Assembly (NCBI GenBank): GCA_013214355.1
Contig: JABSSL010000009.1
Coordinates: 62,001 to 126,000 of the forward strand
Origin: Saprospiraceae bacterium
GTDB taxonomy: Bacteria > Bacteroidota > Bacteroidia > Chitinophagales > Saprospiraceae
Direction: 5' to 3'
DNA: 64,000 nucleotides
In this document: piece by piece, positions 29,081 to 36,848 of the stretch
Position numbering within the stretch: position 1 is the stretch's first letter
How the letters are laid out: every line of letters begins with the position of its first letter
The notes under the pieces: model-generated
Told to the model about the DNA's origin: nothing
The model's input: the letters and a program-made list of their open reading frames with translations, nothing else
The model's database searches: none
Program-made: the position numbers and the translations under genes

Positions 29081-29956
29081 ATGAACACTAGATCAATTTT
29101 GGCATTATTATTTCTCTTTTGCTCCGGGAGTCTACTTACAGCCCAGATGGACTTACCTAGAAAGAGCCCTAGAGCAAGCGTATCCTACACGATCGCTTAT
29201 ACAACGGTCAATATCACTTATTCTAGTCCAGCTGTAAAGGGGCGAGAAATATGGGGAGAGTTGGAACCCTACAATCAATTGTGGAGAGCAGGGGCCAATG
29301 AGGCTACGACTATTGAGTTTTCTACTCCCGTCAAAGTCGAAGGAAAATCTTTGCCGCAAGGGAAATATGCTTTCTTCTTAATCCCGAAAGAGGAGGGGAA
29401 ATGGATGGCCATTTTCAACAAAGATAACGAACAGTGGGGCGCTTACTCCTATGATAAAGAGCAAGATGCTTTGCGTGTTGAAGTGGGTATGCAAGAGTCT
29501 AAAGTGAACGAGGAGCGACTCAACTATACGGTGGTTGAACAAGAAATTGATCAAGGGTACATCCGTTTGGGATGGGGACACACCAGAGTGTATATCCGTT
29601 TCCAGTCAGATTTGCTGAACCAGTTGGAAACGCAATTGAATTCTGCTCTGCTACAAACTTCTGAAGAGGACCGCTGGAAGACTTACGCTCAGGCTGCGGA
29701 TCTTTTATCAGAAAGTAGTAAATACGGAAAGCAGGCTTTGGCTTACGCCGAGGAATCTACCAACCTATTTAGCCACTCCAGCAATTGGTGGATTAAGGCC
29801 CGAATCCAAGCTTCTATGGAAGATTACCAAGCAGCTATCGAAAGTGCCAAGAAAGCTGCGGAAGCCGGGAAAGCCGATGAAAAAGATCGCTTCTATCGCA
29901 ATTCCAAATCTAGAATTGAACGCATGGTTGCCGATTGGGAATCTAAAACCCGGTAA
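29081..29956 (+). CDS. DUF2911 domain protein with C-terminal TPR-like helices
   Basis: 291 residues with a signal peptide ending LLTAQ. The mature protein opens with the DUF2911 pattern (PRKSPRASVSYTIAYTTVNI, YSSPAVKGREIWGELEPYNQLWRAGANEATTIEF read in pieces), including the conserved RAGANEATT and LPQGKYAFFLIP motifs. The last 100 residues are helical (WWIKARIQASMEDYQAAIESAKKAAE) and TPR-like. DUF2911 proteins are common secreted or periplasmic proteins of Bacteroidetes without a known function. The gene stands alone and converges on the operon at 30073-35216. Confidence 0.85.
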   Translation: MNTRSILALLFLFCSGSLLTAQMDLPRKSPRASVSYTIAYTTVNITYSSPAVKGREIWGELEPYNQLWRAGANEATTIEFSTPVKVEGKSLPQGKYAFFLIPKEEGKWMAIFNKDNEQWGAYSYDKEQDALRVEVGMQESKVNEERLNYTVVEQEIDQGYIRLGWGHTRVYIRFQSDLLNQLETQLNSALLQTSEEDRWKTYAQAADLLSESSKYGKQALAYAEESTNLFSHSSNWWIKARIQASMEDYQAAIESAKKAAEAGKADEKDRFYRNSKSRIERMVADWESKTR

Positions 29957-29997
29957 TGCCAAGCTAGATCATATAGGCCTTTAATCAGGCTTAAAAG

Positions 29998-30036
29998 AGA
30001 AGAGGAGCGGTGTCGTCAGTTCGGCACCGCTCTTCT
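29998..30036. terminator. Bidirectional terminator hairpin
   Basis: A GC-rich stem, GCGGTGTCG facing CGGCACCGC and extended by AGAAGA/TCTTCT, lies between the converging genes ending at 29956 and 30073. Confidence 0.75.
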
Positions 30037-30072
30037 AGTATCTAACCCTTTATAAATTGATCATCAATCTGT

Positions 30073-31203
30073 TTAATTCAGGCGCTTGAAGAGGGAGTCT
30101 GCTAAATCATTAAGATAATCCCAAGCCTTCCATGGAGAAAGGCCAATGAAAGTAGCGACCAAGATGGAAATGTAGATATTGGTCAGATCTAGATTCAACT
30201 CCGCCTCTCCAAAGGCAATGTTGATCTTTATGAAGGACAAGACGATGGAAAGCAATAAGGCTAAAATCGGAACGGTAAAGATCAGCCCTAGGCTGTGGTA
30301 GATTCCTGATTTGATGAATCGTTTTCGGAAAAGGTAGTAGCCGGTGTTGACGATAAGTCGTAACAGTGTAGCCAATAAGGCCCAAAGTAGGATCTCGAGC
30401 ATTCGCATGGGATAAATATCCCAAAAGAAGTTATTGGGTTTTTGACTGCTTTCTTCCCGTATCTCCTTTAAGAGTAGCTTCAACTCTGCTTCCTTGCCTC
30501 GCTCCGCTGCCCGTTGTGCTTCGTCGATGAGGAAGACATAAGCCTTGCCGAAATCGGAGGAATCCAGCTTTTCATTCGCTAGGGTGTTCATAGCAATGAT
30601 GCGCATGGTATCCAAGGTATTCATTACAAAACGATTGGCAGGGGTGGCTGTAGCGGTAAAGGTGATGGAATCAGGAGAAGTACCGCTTGAATCCTGAACA
30701 ACTGATACCTCAACATTTGACCCTAAGACATTGTCCTCTCCTTCCAGCTCTTGATACTCTTCTAACATTTCCACCAGCTTAGCCACCTGTGCATCTAAGG
30801 GTACTGGATATTGAATGTGCCAATAGGAATAATAGCCACTGACGACCAATAACAAAATGACCAAGGTTGCTCCAAATCCGATTCCTGCGGATTGGGAAAA
30901 TTGATCCTTACTCAGCATTGGGATGTTCTGGAAGTTTTTACCTACTTCCATTGGAACCGAGACGGTGGGTTCGTCTCCCTCCATTATTGCATCATCATGA
31001 TACACTGCCAGTGTATAATCCCCCTCAGGAAACTTTTTTTCGTCGGAAAGGTCCAATTCAAATTCCCCGTTTCGGTCCGTATCTATGAAGGTAGTCTCGC
31101 CACTCACTCCTTTGATAGGTTCAAATTTGATGGTCGCATCTACGTATCGAGCATTGCTCGTTTTATCATATACTTTTCCACGTAGGATTCTAGTGTTAGC
31201 CAT
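30073..31203 (-). CDS. Four-helix membrane protein with N-terminal carboxypeptidase-regulatory-like domain; third gene of the HNH-ATPase operon
   Basis: 376 residues, no signal peptide. Residues 1-95 look like a small beta-sandwich of the carboxypeptidase-regulatory type (RGKVYDKTSNARYVDATI, DRNGEFELDL, PEGDYTLAVYHD). A transmembrane helix follows at about 107-128, then a 135-residue helical and acidic loop (135-260), and three more helices at about 266-291, 303-326 and 341-357. I do not recognise a named family for the whole protein. It lies 74 bases after the HNH gene on the same strand, with no terminator seen between, so it is probably co-expressed. A role as membrane anchor, sensor or membrane-acting effector of the nuclease system is inference. 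Confidence 0.72.
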   Translation of the reverse strand: MANTRILRGKVYDKTSNARYVDATIKFEPIKGVSGETTFIDTDRNGEFELDLSDEKKFPEGDYTLAVYHDDAIMEGDEPTVSVPMEVGKNFQNIPMLSKDQFSQSAGIGFGATLVILLLVVSGYYSYWHIQYPVPLDAQVAKLVEMLEEYQELEGEDNVLGSNVEVSVVQDSSGTSPDSITFTATATPANRFVMNTLDTMRIIAMNTLANEKLDSSDFGKAYVFLIDEAQRAAERGKEAELKLLLKEIREESSQKPNNFFWDIYPMRMLEILLWALLATLLRLIVNTGYYLFRKRFIKSGIYHSLGLIFTVPILALLLSIVLSFIKINIAFGEAELNLDLTNIYISILVATFIGLSPWKAWDYLNDLADSLFKRLN

Positions 31204-31277
31204 GAGGTGGTAGTTTAGCTTTTAGTTGGTGTATCAAGACGGAGGTTTTTAGGACGATGATTAGGGAAATAGTAGTT

Positions 31278-32726
31278 CTAAGTGGGGGATTCGTCCTCTC
31301 TAGCCAAGGCAGCTTTCAAAGCGGAGGGTTTCACTTTATCTAAGATTTGAAGCAAGTGCTCATCTTTCATTAAGCCTTTGTCCAACATTTCTTTCATTGG
31401 AGCCCATTCTTTGATATCGTGCTGGATAAGATCCCGTTTCATGGCGAGATAAGGTTGGTCCGCCTGTAATTTTTCTAAGATTAGGCTGATGGCCGTCTCA
31501 ATATCTTGCATGGATTTCTGTTGATTCTCTTCTGCGTCAGTGATTAGCTCATGAGTCAGTTTCTTAAGTCGCTTTTGAACGCTAGGATTAGCTACATGGC
31601 CCAGTTCCTGCTGGAGGACCTTTAATTCTCCTTCCATCTTTCTCATTCTTAGAAATCCTTTGATACTTACGATTAATGCAAAGAAGTCATTTTGGAGATT
31701 AAGCGCTTCACGTGTTCTGGCCCATACCAGTCCAGCTCGGTTAAGGCCATAGACATTAATGGATTTTTGCCCTTTTTGACTATCATTTAAGGCAACAGCG
31801 AATACGCCTTGCACTCGCCCTTCCTCATCATAGCGCATCTCAAACTTCAAATGTTCCGCCGGGTCATCTACACAGGGATTAAGTAGTAATCGACTTTTCT
31901 CCTCCTGCCGTACTTTGGCGATCATATCATCCCAGGTGTCATGATCTCTAACGCGATCTGTTTCATCAGCTAAGGGAAAAATTGTAGCCTTTCCACTGGC
32001 TGTTTCTCCGTCGCCATCAATGTCGTCTTGGTTGCGGCGGCGATTACAGTCAATACAGGAAAGCAATAGATTATCCCAGTCTGCGGCCAGCCAATAGTAA
32101 CCAGGCTTGAGTTCCAATACCTTTTCCTTACCGGTCTTTTCATCAATTTTGACGGCAGATTTTGGGCGAAAATGCTCTATGTCGGCGGGAGAGACGTGCA
32201 CGAAGCTGCTCTCGCAGTAAGCGCACTTCAAGAAGAAGTTTCTTTGTAGTTCGCTAACGAGTGTGTCATTCTTGTAGAAGGAAAATTTCCCGTAAGCCTT
32301 TAATTTTAAACCTAACCCTTCCACTTGGATTTCTGCTCTTCTTAAGAGATCTAGATTTGCATTTTGCTTTTTTAGCTTTCTAGCTAGTTTCTTGATATTG
32401 GACTGTACCTGCTTTAGTTGTGGATAAAGGGTGGCATACTCTTGGATGTGTCCAGCAGCTTGATCTCCTTTCTGGGTAGTATTGATGCGATCAATGGCCA
32501 CATCAATCGCTTGCTGGGTATCAGTGTCTTTAGAATCGAAGTGGAATTTCAGGTCCTCTACTAGTAAAGTTAGTTCATCTGCCTCGATTTTATCGCGAAT
32601 CGCTTGATTACACCGCTTAATCTCACCAATATAATGGGCGATAGCTGCATCTGCTTCGGCCTGCGCTTTTTTCAGTAGATCTGTATCTAAGACATCCTCC
32701 TTTTTAGGCTTTGGAATCTGGATCAT
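31278..32726 (-). CDS. HNH endonuclease with N-terminal coiled coil (PtuB-like)
   Basis: 482 residues. Residues 1-150 are helical and charged, probably a coiled coil. The HNH domain has zinc-site cysteines CAYC (168, 171) and CIDC (224, 227), catalytic His185 in DIEHFRPK and Asn219 in DWDNL, and then LLLNPCVDDPAEHLKF and LNRAGLVWAR, as in the PtuB-type HNH family found in Septu systems and some retrons. The C-terminal third is helical. It starts 12 bases after the ATPase-HNH gene, so the two are in one operon. The same motif series occurs in the N-terminus of that neighbour, showing that the two HNH domains are paralogous. Expected role: nicking or cutting nucleic acid under control of the ATPase. 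Confidence 0.85.
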   Translation of the reverse strand: MIQIPKPKKEDVLDTDLLKKAQAEADAAIAHYIGEIKRCNQAIRDKIEADELTLLVEDLKFHFDSKDTDTQQAIDVAIDRINTTQKGDQAAGHIQEYATLYPQLKQVQSNIKKLARKLKKQNANLDLLRRAEIQVEGLGLKLKAYGKFSFYKNDTLVSELQRNFFLKCAYCESSFVHVSPADIEHFRPKSAVKIDEKTGKEKVLELKPGYYWLAADWDNLLLSCIDCNRRRNQDDIDGDGETASGKATIFPLADETDRVRDHDTWDDMIAKVRQEEKSRLLLNPCVDDPAEHLKFEMRYDEEGRVQGVFAVALNDSQKGQKSINVYGLNRAGLVWARTREALNLQNDFFALIVSIKGFLRMRKMEGELKVLQQELGHVANPSVQKRLKKLTHELITDAEENQQKSMQDIETAISLILEKLQADQPYLAMKRDLIQHDIKEWAPMKEMLDKGLMKDEHLLQILDKVKPSALKAALAREDESPT

Positions 32727-32738
32727 GGCACGCTATTT

Positions 32739-35216
32739 TTATTGATCTGGAGAGGAGGATAATACCCTATCCCAGGTATCTAAAATCTTCTTTCGGTCGG
32801 TATCTTCTATCTGCTCAAAAATATCTTTCTTAGATTTCGCCAATGCCACCTTATCCTCGATCAATTTGTACTCGACTTCTTCTGTAATGGTATTGCCTAA
32901 CTTAAGGTTGGCTCCTTCTAATTCATCCTTGAGTTGCCGAAGTTTTTTATCTCGCTCATCCTTTTCTGCTTGATCTCCCAATTCTGCGATAGCTAGAAGC
33001 TTATAGTATTCATCATACTTCTTTTCTACCTCTGGATCCATAATGGAATTAAGGCCAAAAAAAGTGGATGTAAGCAATTCTTGGATACTCAACTGTTGTA
33101 CGGAGGGAAGCCCCTCGGTTTGGATCGTAATTTTATTTTTTTGGTCCTTATCCCGTTGAAGAATGGCCACTTCACCCTTCTTTAAACCTCTCAAACAGAG
33201 CGGTTCGTGAGTAGTAATAATGAAACTCATCTTAGGAAAGGTTCGCTTCAGCGTTTTGACGATACGCATCTTCCAACGAGGATGTAAGTGTACACCGATT
33301 TCATCGATCATGACGATACCTGCGACATCTAGGAGTGAATAAGTGGCATCGCTAGCCTCATTGGTGGAGAGGTTCTTAAGGAGTTCGGCGGCTCCCATCA
33401 TGATGTCCAGTGTGATGGCTAGTACCGTTTGATATCCACTGCTCAAGTATTTGAAAGGGGTTTTCTTTTTGTCTACTTGCCCTGCTACATCTTCTTCTAA
33501 GATCAATTGTTTAGTCAGTGGATCTCTCTTTATTTCTTGGTCATCCTCTAGTTGTAGCAGATTGCTAAGTCCCTCCTTTAAGGGGATAAATATTTCTTCT
33601 GGCACTTGTTCCTCATCTCCTAGCCATTCAAAGCCATTTCCGAGTTTAGCGTTTGGATTAAATAAATTGCTAGTGCGGATAAAGCTGTGTTCATCTTGAC
33701 CTAGAATTTCTTCTTCGCTAGGTAGGCGAGTAGCTCCGTAAGCCATCATTAAGACTTGTGGCGTTTCTTCACTTAGGAAAAAGCTGCCTTTTTTCTCCCC
33801 TCTAGTAATTTCTAAGACAATAGGCTCTTCTCTATTCAGTAGGTATACTTCGACTTTGGCTTTGGCTTGGCCAAAACGAATAAAATCATTGAGATTCAAC
33901 TCCATGGATTCCAGTTTGCTTTTGCCCATCAAGGTCATTGCAATGGCCTGAGAAATAGAGCTTTTGCCTACTCCATTTTCACCGAGAAGTGCCAGCCAAG
34001 GTCGGCTGGTGTCCGTCTTAAGCTGTCGAGTATTGAGTTGACTACTAGTGTCTGGGAAATCCACTGGTAAATGCTCAAAGGCCTTGAAATTGGTCAGTAC
34101 TACCTTTTCTATCCAGAGGGATTTTGTAAAGTAAGCAGCCAAGTTTTCCCGCTTTTCTAAGTTGTAGGTATTCTTAGATTTTTCTACCTCCTCTTGCTCC
34201 TTTTCTATAGTAGTGACTTGATCAAAGGTGTAGGAATTACTGGGAGCGGCTTCGGATTCGAAATAAGCAGGTAGGTCGCCATCATAGATGGCCCTACAGT
34301 GTGCTAGTGCGTTTGAGTCCTGCGAAGAATTCAACCACCACTCATCTAGGATGGAGGCCACAAAAGGGTGACTGGGACTCAGCAATTTGCGGGTGGGCTC
34401 CTGTCCTTGAGCCATTGCTTCAATTTCCTCTGCCCGGGCTTTACTAACGAGCTTCCGGATGGCTACGAGTCTGGGGCGGTTTAATTTGAAGACGTCAATC
34501 GTCTGTTGTCCCATTTCATCCGTTCCTAAGGCTCTTCCATCTCGGAAGAGAATATGTCTTGTTTGAAAATCAGTGTGCTGACAAGGATCGAGTAATAAAG
34601 CTTCTTCTTTATCCAGGCCTTCACGAAGATTGTGCAGGCCCATCTCCTCGTGGAAAGAAGCCCTATTCAAGGCAGCAATTGGAAACTTGTTTTCCTTGGC
34701 GGTCAAACAGGAGCGGCAAATCAAGAAGAGATTGTTCCAATCCCAACCTAGCCACCAATAGTGGGCTGGACTGACCGTACCGTTGGCATTCATGGCCCTC
34801 AACTCCGGTCTAAAAAAACCGATGTCATAGGCTTCAAATCCTTCCTTAGTTTGCTCACCATAATAGCTGTTGAAGCCGCGCGTCATGCCTTTTACGAATT
34901 TCTCTTCTTTGGGCTTTCTATTGATGAGATCTTCCAAGTCACTCCTTTGCTTGGATATATCGTCTGTAAAGTGGTCGGTATTAGTACCCACTACGAGGCT
35001 TTCGCAGAAAGGACATTTGTTGTTAAAAACTTGGACCAATTCCTTTTCCATCCCCTCGTCCATGGGGAGGGTGAATTGATCTTGATCGAACCGACCTGTA
35101 CGGATTTCATACTGGTTTTGCTCGTGCAGCATGAATTCCTTCTGTTGCTGAAATACCTCCTGGACTTTAGGGCTTTTGAACCAATCGGGTTGAGCGGAGC
35201 GTTGGATGAAGATCAT
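32739..35216 (-). CDS. HNH-like domain fused to an ABC/AAA-type ATPase (PtuA-like); first gene of a candidate defence operon
   Basis: 825 residues. Residues 60-260 are an HNH-like module: CPFC (68, 71), DHF (His82), WDWNNL (159-163), CRSC (167, 170), LLLDPCQHTDF (208-217) and KLNRPRLV (244-251). Residues 370-690 are an SMC/OLD-like ATPase: Walker A LGENGVGKSS (Lys418), ABC signature LSSGYQT (591-597), Walker B GIVMIDEIG (Asp638, Glu639) and switch His670 in IITTH. A helical tail follows (about 720-825). PtuA of Septu is such an ATPase but is normally separate from its HNH partner PtuB; here one HNH is fused and another follows as its own gene. The motif DIGFFRPE (131-138) parallels the catalytic DIEHFRPK of the partner with His replaced by Phe, so the fused nuclease may be degenerate; His82 could still serve. 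Confidence 0.85.
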   Translation of the reverse strand: MIFIQRSAQPDWFKSPKVQEVFQQQKEFMLHEQNQYEIRTGRFDQDQFTLPMDEGMEKELVQVFNNKCPFCESLVVGTNTDHFTDDISKQRSDLEDLINRKPKEEKFVKGMTRGFNSYYGEQTKEGFEAYDIGFFRPELRAMNANGTVSPAHYWWLGWDWNNLFLICRSCLTAKENKFPIAALNRASFHEEMGLHNLREGLDKEEALLLDPCQHTDFQTRHILFRDGRALGTDEMGQQTIDVFKLNRPRLVAIRKLVSKARAEEIEAMAQGQEPTRKLLSPSHPFVASILDEWWLNSSQDSNALAHCRAIYDGDLPAYFESEAAPSNSYTFDQVTTIEKEQEEVEKSKNTYNLEKRENLAAYFTKSLWIEKVVLTNFKAFEHLPVDFPDTSSQLNTRQLKTDTSRPWLALLGENGVGKSSISQAIAMTLMGKSKLESMELNLNDFIRFGQAKAKVEVYLLNREEPIVLEITRGEKKGSFFLSEETPQVLMMAYGATRLPSEEEILGQDEHSFIRTSNLFNPNAKLGNGFEWLGDEEQVPEEIFIPLKEGLSNLLQLEDDQEIKRDPLTKQLILEEDVAGQVDKKKTPFKYLSSGYQTVLAITLDIMMGAAELLKNLSTNEASDATYSLLDVAGIVMIDEIGVHLHPRWKMRIVKTLKRTFPKMSFIITTHEPLCLRGLKKGEVAILQRDKDQKNKITIQTEGLPSVQQLSIQELLTSTFFGLNSIMDPEVEKKYDEYYKLLAIAELGDQAEKDERDKKLRQLKDELEGANLKLGNTITEEVEYKLIEDKVALAKSKKDIFEQIEDTDRKKILDTWDRVLSSSPDQ

Positions 35217-35553
35217 GGTTTTCTTTGTATTTTGAATAGAGGTCTATCCCATTATTCCCCTGTTCCCGACGAGAGCGGGAGGTATGAGTTTGAAACAGTG
35301 GAAATGGGGACTTTTACTGCTTTTCTATGAATGCAAGATACTGTCTAATATAGCAGAATTTGATCAAACGGTAGAGAACAACCTTTCCCTGTCCATCTTC
35401 GGGGGGCGATTCGACAGACGGGTAGGCGTGATCAGTTTAGGTAGGCAGGCAAGTTTTAAGGCCAGGAATTGCGACTAGGTAAAGGAATGACTTAACGACA
35501 TAAAAATTGTCAGAGAACCTGCTCAGAGGTAGGAAGAAGGTGTAGTTGTTGAT
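35217..35553. other. 337-base spacer upstream of the HNH-ATPase operon
   Basis: The operon promoter should lie here, but no TAnnTTTG element was found on the minus strand. A small CCCG/CGGG hairpin lies near 35265. A 64-codon plus-strand frame has no recognisable features. Confidence 0.5.
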
Positions 35554-36048
35554 CTAGGAATCTCGCTTTACCCACCGTAAGGCATTATTCCCTTCTGCTC
35601 TCATTGTGGCTAGCACACCATCCAGGTGATCACATTCGTGTTGCAGCAATTCTGATAAATCATCGGCTAAGTCCCAGACTTGCTCCTCCCAGTTTTCGTC
35701 CCTAAAACGCATTTTACAGTAGCGATGTCGCTTTAACCAAACGTGTAAGTCCGGGAAGCTCATACAATCATCCCACATTTCCATCATCTCTTCACTGCAG
35801 TCGAACAATTCTGGGTTGAAGAAGGCAATAGGACGATCTATATTAATCACCACCAGACGTTTCATCACGCCTAGCTGTGGGGCCGCAATGGCCCTTCCTG
35901 CACCATATTTAGCGCGAAACTCTAGAATGACATTGGCCATATCATTGATGGTCTCCTGCAGGGCAGGTACTTCTTCTTTTTTAACAGCTTCGCACACTTC
36001 GTAGAGACGGGGATCACCTAAGAGGACGATATCAGTTAAATGTTTCAT
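35554..36048 (-). CDS. def: Divergent peptide deformylase
   Basis: 164 residues. Peptide deformylase removes the formyl group from new proteins. Motif 3 is intact as QHECDHLDG (two metal-binding His and the catalytic Glu). Motif 1 reads GRAIAAPQLG, and motif 2 reads DDCMSFPD where EGCLS is usual; the metal-binding Cys is kept but the flanking Glu-Gly is Asp-Asp. Length fits the family. The changes suggest a paralogue with altered substrate preference; a standard copy probably exists elsewhere. The start codon is 21 bases before the stop of nothing on this strand; it is followed downstream by the HNH operon and preceded by a metallo-hydrolase gene 20 bases away, suggesting co-transcription with the latter. 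Confidence 0.85.
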   Translation of the reverse strand: MKHLTDIVLLGDPRLYEVCEAVKKEEVPALQETINDMANVILEFRAKYGAGRAIAAPQLGVMKRLVVINIDRPIAFFNPELFDCSEEMMEMWDDCMSFPDLHVWLKRHRYCKMRFRDENWEEQVWDLADDLSELLQHECDHLDGVLATMRAEGNNALRWVKRDS

Positions 36049-36068
36049 GAGTAAGGACTTTATGTTAT

Positions 36069-36848
36069 TTAGAATTGTCCATGGATAACCAATCCATCGT
36101 AGGCAAGTTCGACACCAGCTGGCAAGGTCGGATTGACTTCATCATATAGGCCCATGCGATGACTCACATGGGTGAGATAGGCTTGTTCCGGGGCCAACTC
36201 CTCGATCAGGGCCAGCGCTTCTTCGAGGTTTAAGTGGGAATGGTGTGCTTTGTAGTGCAACGCATTTATGACTATGGTTTTTAGATTCTTGAGTTTCGAT
36301 TTCTCCTCGTCTGATATAGTTTTCATATCGGTAAGATAAGCTAGGTTACCAATACGAAACCCTAAAACAGAAAGCTTTCCATGCAAGTACTGGACGGGTT
36401 GGATCGGTGTGCCCTCTACCTCAAACGGGTGATTTTCTATCGTTTTTAGCACCACCATCGGTGCGCCGGGGTAGGGGTCGGTCTCAAAGACGTAATCAAA
36501 ACGCTTGATCAAGGCTTGTTGGACTTCCACTGTAGCATAAACGGGCATATCTTTCTTCTGCCGATAATTAAAGGGGCGAACATCATCCAAGCCAATTATA
36601 TGATCATTATGAGCATGCGTGAAAAGAACGCCATCTAGATGCTTGATGTTTTCGCGAAGCATTTGTTGCCTGAAATCAGGACCACAATCTATAGATAGCT
36701 TTTGGTCCCCTACTTCCAAGAGGGCAGAAGTTCTCAATCTTTTGTCCTTGGGATTGGTAGATTGACAAACAGGACAATCACAGCCAATGATGGGGACACC
36801 TTGGGAAGTCCCAGACCCTAGTATCGTGAGTTTGAAGTCGATTAGCAA
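36069..36848 (-). CDS. MBL-fold metallo-hydrolase, PhnP-like
   Basis: 259 residues, starting at TTG (an ATT two codons earlier follows an in-frame stop, so no ATG start is available). Features: GSGTSQGVPIIGCDCPVC with the structural zinc cysteines of PhnP-type proteins, the metal site THAHNDHIIGLDD, later NALHYKAHHSHL and a final THVSHRMG histidine motif. The family covers cyclic phosphodiesterases such as PhnP and related metal-dependent hydrolases. No phosphonate genes are nearby, so the substrate is probably something else. It sits between a deformylase gene (20 bases downstream) and a small conserved gene. Confidence 0.88.
   Translation of the reverse strand: MLIDFKLTILGSGTSQGVPIIGCDCPVCQSTNPKDKRLRTSALLEVGDQKLSIDCGPDFRQQMLRENIKHLDGVLFTHAHNDHIIGLDDVRPFNYRQKKDMPVYATVEVQQALIKRFDYVFETDPYPGAPMVVLKTIENHPFEVEGTPIQPVQYLHGKLSVLGFRIGNLAYLTDMKTISDEEKSKLKNLKTIVINALHYKAHHSHLNLEEALALIEELAPEQAYLTHVSHRMGLYDEVNPTLPAGVELAYDGLVIHGQF

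What the first reader, a model, noticed from the sequence alone, without database searches (positions are those of the whole stretch)
32739..35216. HNH module fused to the ATPase may be a degenerate, structural paralogue of the free HNH nuclease
Both proteins share the same motif order: CxxC, W-D-W/D-N-L, CxxC, LLL(D/N)PC, and a LNR segment. The free nuclease has DIEHFRPK. The fused one has DIGFFRPE at the corresponding place before its WDWNNL, losing the Glu-His and the Lys. A DHF motif lies earlier, at a spacing from the first CxxC (11 residues) also compatible with the catalytic His. So the fused domain is either dead and used for assembly or active with a large insertion.
Basis: partly seen in the sequence, partly recalled or inferred. 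Interest (0 to 1): 0.7.

Follow-up and report, generated by a model that had tools for sequence, protein, structure and literature searches.

The report
Dead nuclease copy fused to PtuA
In this bacterial anti-phage (Septu) gene pair, the ATPase carries a copy of its partner nuclease whose cutting site has decayed while its folded scaffold is kept, which suggests that the copy now holds or controls the working nuclease rather than cutting.

Summary
The two genes are a Septu pair: PtuA (32739-35216, minus strand) and PtuB (31278-32726). This PtuA starts with a PtuB-like protein (HNH core and part of the PtuB tail). A profile alignment made without other fused relatives puts DIGFFRPE on the catalytic DIEHFRPK of PtuB: the catalytic His is Phe134, its acidic neighbour Gly133, the Lys Glu138, and the Asn after the second CxxC is Leu171. 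His82 lies in an insert seen only in this genus. In 25 fused copies (Bacteroidota, Pseudomonadota, Bacillota, viral contigs) the catalytic His survives in 7 and the whole Asp/Glu-His-Lys-Asn set in 3; 24 of 24 partner PtuBs keep it. The four zinc cysteines and the middle Asn stay in 25 of 25. The window's copy is not a recent duplicate of its own PtuB (AU p 0.015). Best reading: a conserved pseudonuclease moiety on PtuA working beside an active PtuB. That it docks or gates PtuB is inference; no activity was measured. PADLOC's long PtuA models already capture such proteins but label them only 'AAA ATPase domain'. A new variant of a known system.

The parts
32739..35216 (-). ptuA-like gene, 825 aa: N-terminal PtuB-like pseudonuclease fused to a PtuA ABC/AAA ATPase
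   Evidence: translation; PADLOC PtuA PDLC00292 E 6.2e-169; PtuB models on residues 118-270; ATPase part: PtuA chains, e.g. 8ee4_E Z 27.0, rmsd 3.3, 315 aligned
34437..35039 (-). residues 60-260, HNH core of the fused domain
   Evidence: (aligned with PtuB residues 148-338)
35004..35015 (-). first CxxC (C68, C71), kept in 25 of 25 fused copies
34836..34988 (-). residues 77-127, insert seen only in this genus; holds His82 (34971-34973)
   Evidence: 65-69% identical between species against 87-89% for the rest of the core
34803..34826 (-). residues 131-138 DIGFFRPE, the decayed catalytic motif (F134 at the place of PtuB H185)
34728..34745 (-). residues 158-163 WDWNNL (N162 = PtuB N219), Asn kept in 25 of 25
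34704..34718 (-). residues 167-171 CRSCL: second CxxC kept, following Asn replaced by L171
33957..33983 (-). residues 412-420 GENGVGKSS, Walker A of the ATPase
31278..32726 (-). ptuB gene, 482 aa, HNH nuclease with intact active site
   Evidence: PADLOC PtuB PDLC00319 E 2.1e-70; model matches retron Ec78 PtuB 9u9y_H, Z 14.9, rmsd 3.2, 197 aligned
32160..32183 (-). residues 182-189 DIEHFRPK, catalytic motif of the free PtuB (H185)
30073..31203 (-). third gene, 376 aa, several hydrophobic segments, weak CarboxypepD_reg-like N-terminus; conserved neighbour within the genus, membership of the system not shown

Best explanation
A Septu anti-phage pair in which PtuA begins with a PtuB-like protein that has lost nuclease chemistry. 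The fused domain keeps the zinc-held HNH scaffold and most likely serves as a built-in docking, substrate-binding or gating subunit for the separate, catalytically intact PtuB. Shown: homology, register, loss of the catalytic residues in the window and repeatedly in the family, retention of the scaffold, an intact PtuB encoded next to it. Inferred: catalytic death (no assay) and the docking/gating role. On infection the PtuA ATPase assembly would license the free PtuB to cut nucleic acid (tRNA or DNA, as known Septu/retron PtuAB do); the pseudo-PtuB would place or restrain it.
For: Register: hhalign of three genus members against PtuBs places DIGFFRP on DIEHFRP, leaving residues 79-127 with H82 unmatched. 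Catalytic set E184/H185/K189/N228 is G133/F134/E138/L171 in the window; H and N of this motif were shown essential in PtuB of Septu EcB88 (H75, N91; PMC13096335, passages). Over 25 fused rows: His 7, Asn228 11, both 3; 24 of 24 partner PtuBs keep all; four Cys, N219 and P188 25 of 25, R187 24 of 25. In a thinned set of 18 fused and 20 PtuBs, 10 columns are conserved at 90% or more in PtuB and at most half kept in fused; four of them are E184, H185, K189, N228, while 22 columns are conserved in both. At least 6 changes of the His state on the tree. The fused core is under purifying selection: amino acids 87-89% identical outside the insert while synonymous sites are near saturation. PtuB directly follows PtuA in 18 of 18 plasmid loci, overlapping in 15. 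Distances between fused domains track those between their PtuBs (Mantel r 0.78, 23 pairs, 0 of 5000; 0.39 after thinning to 19, 0 of 5000), as for parts of one machine, though plain co-inheritance of the operon would do the same.
Against: No activity or binding data. 3 of 25 fused copies (L016, L017, L041) keep a complete catalytic set and 7 keep the His, so the domain is not dead throughout the family. The model of the fused protein is only fair (mean pLDDT 69, pTM 0.56; block 131-140 at 69, 121-130 at 44), and the structure comparison hardly tested residues 1-344. H82 is kept in 3 of 3 genus members, so it may do something.
Confidence: 0.75

Rival explanations
1. The fused domain is an active nuclease that uses His82 in place of the lost His, with the segment between as a large insert.
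For: H82 lies 11 residues after C71 in a DHF motif and is kept in 3 of 3 genus members; the neighbourhood GTNxxHFTxD is conserved there.
Against: The profile alignment leaves H82 in the unmatched insert. R136-P137 and the 15 residues to YWWL match the intact-type fused copy L016 without a gap. Asn228 is Leu in 3 of 3 and the acid before the His is Gly; D81 is Ala in 2 of 3. The predicted first strand is 128-134, H82 lying in a loop/turn (low confidence there).
Confidence: 0.07
2. The fused domain is a second, weak or differently specific nuclease using other residues, so the system has two cutters.
For: N219, R187-P188 and all four Cys are kept in the family; 3 of 25 fused copies have a complete catalytic set; most fused copies of the main group have His or Tyr where PtuB has Gly209 (15 of 18).
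Against: In the window the general-base position and both usual metal-ligand positions are lost together (G133, F134, L171; roles of these residues recalled from HNH nucleases). His/Tyr at 209 also occurs in copies that keep the catalytic His (L016, L017, L029, L031, L041), so it is not a replacement.
Confidence: 0.1
3. The domain is a decaying passenger without function, on its way out.
For: Catalytic residues vary freely. In one plasmid (L133) PtuA lacks the domain, with an LNR-containing remnant in frame upstream and an annotated IS630 transposase beside it; L022 and L134 have broken frames.
Against: The scaffold is invariant across very divergent copies and the core is 87-89% identical between species with near-saturated synonymous sites; fused-specific conserved positions exist (for example Gly at position 182 in 15 of 18).
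Confidence: 0.08

Closest known systems
Septu type I (PtuA ATPase + PtuB HNH nuclease)
   Same: ATPase related to PtuA (PADLOC PDLC00292 E 6.2e-169) directly followed by PtuB (PDLC00319 E 2.1e-70); no reverse transcriptase on the window's contig found with PF00078
   Different: The PtuA chains of solved structures that were hit are 456-552 aa and are matched from the ATPase on; here a PtuB-like pseudonuclease comes first. PADLOC models PDLC00288, 291 and 292 (726-773 positions) already span such proteins, described only as AAA ATPase domain
Type I-A retrons Ec78 (Eco7) and Ec83, PtuAB effectors
   Same: Same ATPase and HNH families; the fused profile hits both PtuA chains and, separately, PtuB chains (9l7p_H, positions 49-235 on chain 26-209 of 216, E 1.8e-8). 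Two fused relatives have a reverse transcriptase gene close by (L024, L027)
   Different: No reverse transcriptase near the window's genes; no fused HNH in the retron PtuA chains
PtuXYZ and PARIS/Gabija/OLD ATPases
   Same: Related ABC-type ATPase fold (AriA 8v46_B Z 18.5, GajA 8x5i_D Z 17.9)
   Different: Other effectors; weaker structural match than PtuA (Z about 27)

Membership tests
Septu (PtuA) | PtuA-type ABC/AAA ATPase with Walker A | tested here: met
   PADLOC PtuA hit and GENGVGKSS 412-420; VIA-align to PtuA chains. NCBIfam PtuA equivalog NF041760 hit at 106 bits is under its cut-off of 500
Septu (PtuB) | HNH nuclease PtuB with intact His and Asn encoded next to PtuA | tested here: met
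   P0002, 12 bp after PtuA, H185/N219/N228 present. NCBIfam PtuB 49.4 bits and TIGR02646 41.7 bits are both under their cut-offs (150 and 52.15); Pfam HNH 20.9 against 21.4
Septu | protects against phage; ATPase and HNH activity both needed | not testable with these tools
   no experiment; known for Septu EcB88 from PMC13096335 (passages)
Type I-A retron (Septu type II of PADLOC) | reverse transcriptase gene beside ptuAB | tested here: not met
   PF00078 hits in the genome lie on contigs C67 and C45, none on C214
active HNH (beta-beta-alpha metal) nuclease, fused domain | catalytic His on the first strand and metal-binding Asn/His after the second CxxC | tested here: not met
   F134 and L171 at these positions
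PtuB-like fold, fused domain | match to PtuB over the HNH core and beyond | tested here: met
   PADLOC PtuB model PDLC00319 covers model positions 1-82 and 64-239 of 310 in the window's fused gene; nearly whole PtuB models in relatives (L026 1-290 of 295, L016 1-256 of 261)

The most novel reading that the evidence does not exclude
A widespread, so far unnamed class of Septu: PtuA captured a PtuB, perhaps more than once, and turned it into a pseudonuclease subunit with its own conserved signature. Each PtuA dimer then brings two built-in inactive PtuB places that seat, pair with or hold back the one active PtuB, so that the asymmetric 2:1 logic of canonical PtuAB is hard-wired into one chain.
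Probability: 0.45. Interest if true: 0.7.

Novelty: new variant of a known kind. Interest (0 to 1): 0.55.

Why it matters
Septu and type I-A retrons use the same PtuAB effector, and how PtuA turns PtuB on is unclear (a review table lists the activation of PtuAB as 'Unclear'; PMC12198126, passage). A PtuA that carries a natural dead PtuB separates scaffold from catalysis: it offers a ready-made way to test where PtuB sits, whether it works alone or in pairs, and what restrains it. It also shows that an annotation by profile alone ('AAA family ATPase', or 'HNH') hides a pseudoenzyme in a known defence system.

Tried and rejected
His82 as the working catalytic residue: rejected by register, by D81A in both relatives and by L171.

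A recent duplication of the neighbouring ptuB: rejected (AU p 0.0153, lnL 33.8 lower; fused and own PtuB are 23-34% identical in 23 pairs, same call).

One or two origins of the fusion: not settled. The best tree puts three fused copies (L026, L027, L132) with the PtuBs (99/97), but holding all 25 fused together is not rejected (p 0.338). Three rows have long branches (L042, L075, L130).

Foldseek with the free-PtuB model gave no match at E 0.001 or better and no PtuB in its top 50; PtuB appeared only in the VIA-align second look. The structure comparison of the fused model is filled by the ATPase; the HNH part was barely tested. Coordinates of models could not be read, so no superposition of H82 was possible.

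A search of the PDB with P0002 alone found nothing; a profile of PtuBs did. The first viral scan with P0001 found no relative; the alignment scan kept 80 of 175 and fused copies were seen in L038, L039, L041 and L040, a repeat of L038. In phage records 7 had a match, all to the ATPase part only. In Bacteroidota the fusion is rare: 5 of 395 phylum genomes passed 1e-60, but two of these match the ATPase only, leaving 3, the own genome included; 3 of 395 in the class.

Rows left out before counting: of 95 plasmid records with a match 18 were fetched; L040 and L118-L121 repeat contigs already used; L005 repeats L001; L133 has no fused HNH and is counted with the other PtuBs. The 19 'other' PtuBs are not a fair control, since 16 of them were picked by a pattern that asks for EH or HH. 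Among the 25 fused rows some are close kin (three of this genus; L031/L129; L131/L134; L026/L132; L016/L017); the thinned set (18 fused) gives His 6 of 18 and Asn 8 of 18. L003 is cut by a contig end, L022 and L134 are frame-broken.

dN/dS could not be computed for most regions because synonymous sites are saturated.

The structural paper on PtuAB (PMC12318543) and the retron classification (PMC7736814) are not held; stoichiometry is taken from PDB titles and from passages of two other papers.

Literature searches for this fusion. None of the listings or passages I saw describes a PtuA with an HNH part; that covers only the held open library.

Full report
What it is. The flagged gene (32739-35216, minus strand, 825 aa) and the next gene (31278-32726, 482 aa, 12 bp downstream) are PtuA and PtuB of a Septu system. 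PADLOC gives PtuA at E 6.2e-169 and PtuB at E 2.1e-70. Pfam sees AAA domains in the first and HNH just under its cut-off in the second; the NCBIfam equivalogs for retron Ec78 PtuA and PtuB hit but stay under their cut-offs. The free protein's model matches the PtuB of the retron Ec78 complex (9u9y_H, Z 14.9, rmsd 3.2, 197 aligned) and the ATPase part of the fused model matches PtuA (8ee4_E, Z 27.0, rmsd 3.3, 315 aligned).

Direct BLASTP of the two proteins gives E 2e-11.

The fused part is PtuB-like beyond the HNH motif. In the window one PtuB model covers model positions 1-82 and 64-239 of 310, the break being the insert. In relatives PtuB models match almost end to end (L026: 1-290 of 295; L016: 1-256 of 261), and the profile of 14 fused proteins hits PtuB chains of the PDB over residues 26-209 of 216.

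Which His is which. The safest test avoids the other fused families: a profile of the three fused N-termini of this genus against 15 PtuBs (probability 99.5, E 2.3e-22). It places DIGFFRP of the fused protein on DIEHFRP of PtuB and leaves residues 79-127, with H82, unmatched. Alignment with 13 other fused proteins says the same: R136 and P137 are invariant in all 14, and only the window and its same-genus relative carry the insert. The predicted order of elements agrees: strand 128-134, strand 163-167, helix 168-173 in the fused model, against 183-185, 220-222, 225-229 in the free one. The models are of fair quality only (mean pLDDT 69 and 73). So G133, F134, E138 and L171 stand where PtuB has E184, H185, K189 and N228. 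That these PtuB residues are metal ligand, general base and metal ligand is recalled knowledge of HNH nucleases; that the His and the Asn of the motif matter is shown for PtuB of Septu EcB88, where mutants at H75 or N91 abolish immunity (PMC13096335, passages).

Decay is a family trait. I compared 25 fused HNH domains, 24 partner PtuBs and 19 PtuBs of other systems. Catalytic His: 7 of 25 fused, 24 of 24 partners, 19 of 19 others. Asn228: 11 of 25, 24 of 24, 19 of 19. Acid at 184: 15 of 25. Lys189: 7 of 25. The complete set: 3 of 25 (L016, L017, L041). The four Cys, N219 and P188: 25 of 25; R187: 24 of 25. The substitutes for His differ (Q, R, L, F, Y), and the tree needs at least 6 changes of this state. 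In a thinned set of 18 fused and 20 PtuBs, ten columns are conserved at 90% or more in PtuB and half or less in the fused; four of the ten are E184, H185, K189 and N228. Twenty-two columns are conserved in both, among them the zinc cysteines. Positions with a fused-specific choice exist, such as Gly at 182 in 15 of 18 and His or Tyr at 152 in 15 of 18; the window itself has Ala at 182. Most of the 19 'other' PtuBs were preselected for an EH or HH motif, so the fair comparison is with the 24 partners.

It is not simply rotting. Between three genomes of this genus the core outside the insert is 87-89% identical in amino acids while synonymous differences are near saturation; the ATPase is 88%, the PtuB HNH 96%, the insert 65-69%. 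H82 is kept in 3 of 3, D81 in 1 of 3, L171 in 3 of 3. H82 may thus have some role, but the residues around a possible new site are missing.

Origin. The window's fused domain groups with other fused domains, not with its own PtuB; making it sister to its own PtuB is rejected (p 0.0153). Three fused copies (L026, L027, L132) fall with the PtuBs in the best tree and have also lost the His while keeping Asn and Lys, which would be a second, independent capture and decay; but a single origin of all 25 is not rejected (p 0.338). Fused-domain distances follow PtuB distances (r 0.78 for 23 pairs; 0.39 for a thinned 19; 0 of 5000 shuffles each). This fits parts of one machine but also plain joint inheritance.

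Company. PtuB follows directly in 18 of 18 plasmid loci fetched, with overlapping frames in 15, also in the window, L016, L017, L038, L039 and L041. In the relatives of the same genus PtuB follows too. Two relatives have a reverse transcriptase close by (L024, L027), so the variant may serve plain Septu and retrons alike; the window's contig has none found by PF00078. Ten other proteins nearby show no clear defence system.

How it probably works. Known PtuAB complexes hold fewer PtuB than PtuA: 4:2 and 2:1 in PDB titles for retrons, 6:2 for E. coli Septu (PMC12948488 and PMC12198126, passages). PtuAB has been reported to cut tRNA-Tyr (PMC11555353, PMC13096335, passages) or DNA. My reading: PtuA with a built-in pseudo-PtuB provides a fixed PtuB-shaped surface; the free PtuB is the only cutter and is seated, paired or restrained by it. 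Steps shown: homology, register, loss of catalytic residues, conserved scaffold, adjacent intact PtuB. Steps inferred: no catalysis, docking or gating, substrate.

Novelty. PADLOC models of 726-773 positions already span such proteins, so the long PtuA is catalogued, but as 'AAA ATPase domain'. Seven searches of the open library and the passages read gave no description of the fused PtuB or its decay; the key structure paper is not held. I call it a new variant of a known kind.

Noticed in passing
L135 (unnamed same-genus genome G003, contig C591, 1-5000) against window 29081-36848: At the same chromosomal place (metallo-hydrolase, deformylase, DUF2911 gene as neighbours) this genome has a patatin-like phospholipase gene (Pfam E 1.2e-8) instead of PtuA and PtuB, next to a broken copy of the third gene. 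The slot looks exchangeable.
   Followed up: partly
window 30073-31203, minus strand: The third gene (376 aa, several hydrophobic segments) was found in 4 of 40 relatives, all of this genus, in 1 of 395 phylum genomes (its own) and in no plasmid. It may be a partner or just a neighbour of the Septu pair.
   Followed up: partly
L032 7032-8843, L131 5835-7532, L134 5304-7010: A gene annotated as patatin-like phospholipase directly follows PtuB in three plasmids of Paracoccus and Rhizobium (Pfam Patatin checked for L131), a possible added effector.
   Followed up: no
L016 164-1504 and L017 161-1504: A 446-447 aa gene overlaps the start of the fused PtuA in both; only a weak NurA hit in L017 (20.9 bits against a cut-off of 21) and none in L016.
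   Followed up: partly
window 32289-32726, minus strand (PtuB residues 1-146): The window's PtuB has a helical stretch of about 110 residues near its N-terminus that the 14 others in the alignment lack; residues 1-149 are only 68% identical to the nearest relative against 96% for the HNH part.
   Followed up: no
L133 2500-4857: A Mesorhizobium PtuA has lost the fused domain next to an annotated IS630 transposase, with an LNR-containing remnant still in frame; PtuB is kept.
   Followed up: no
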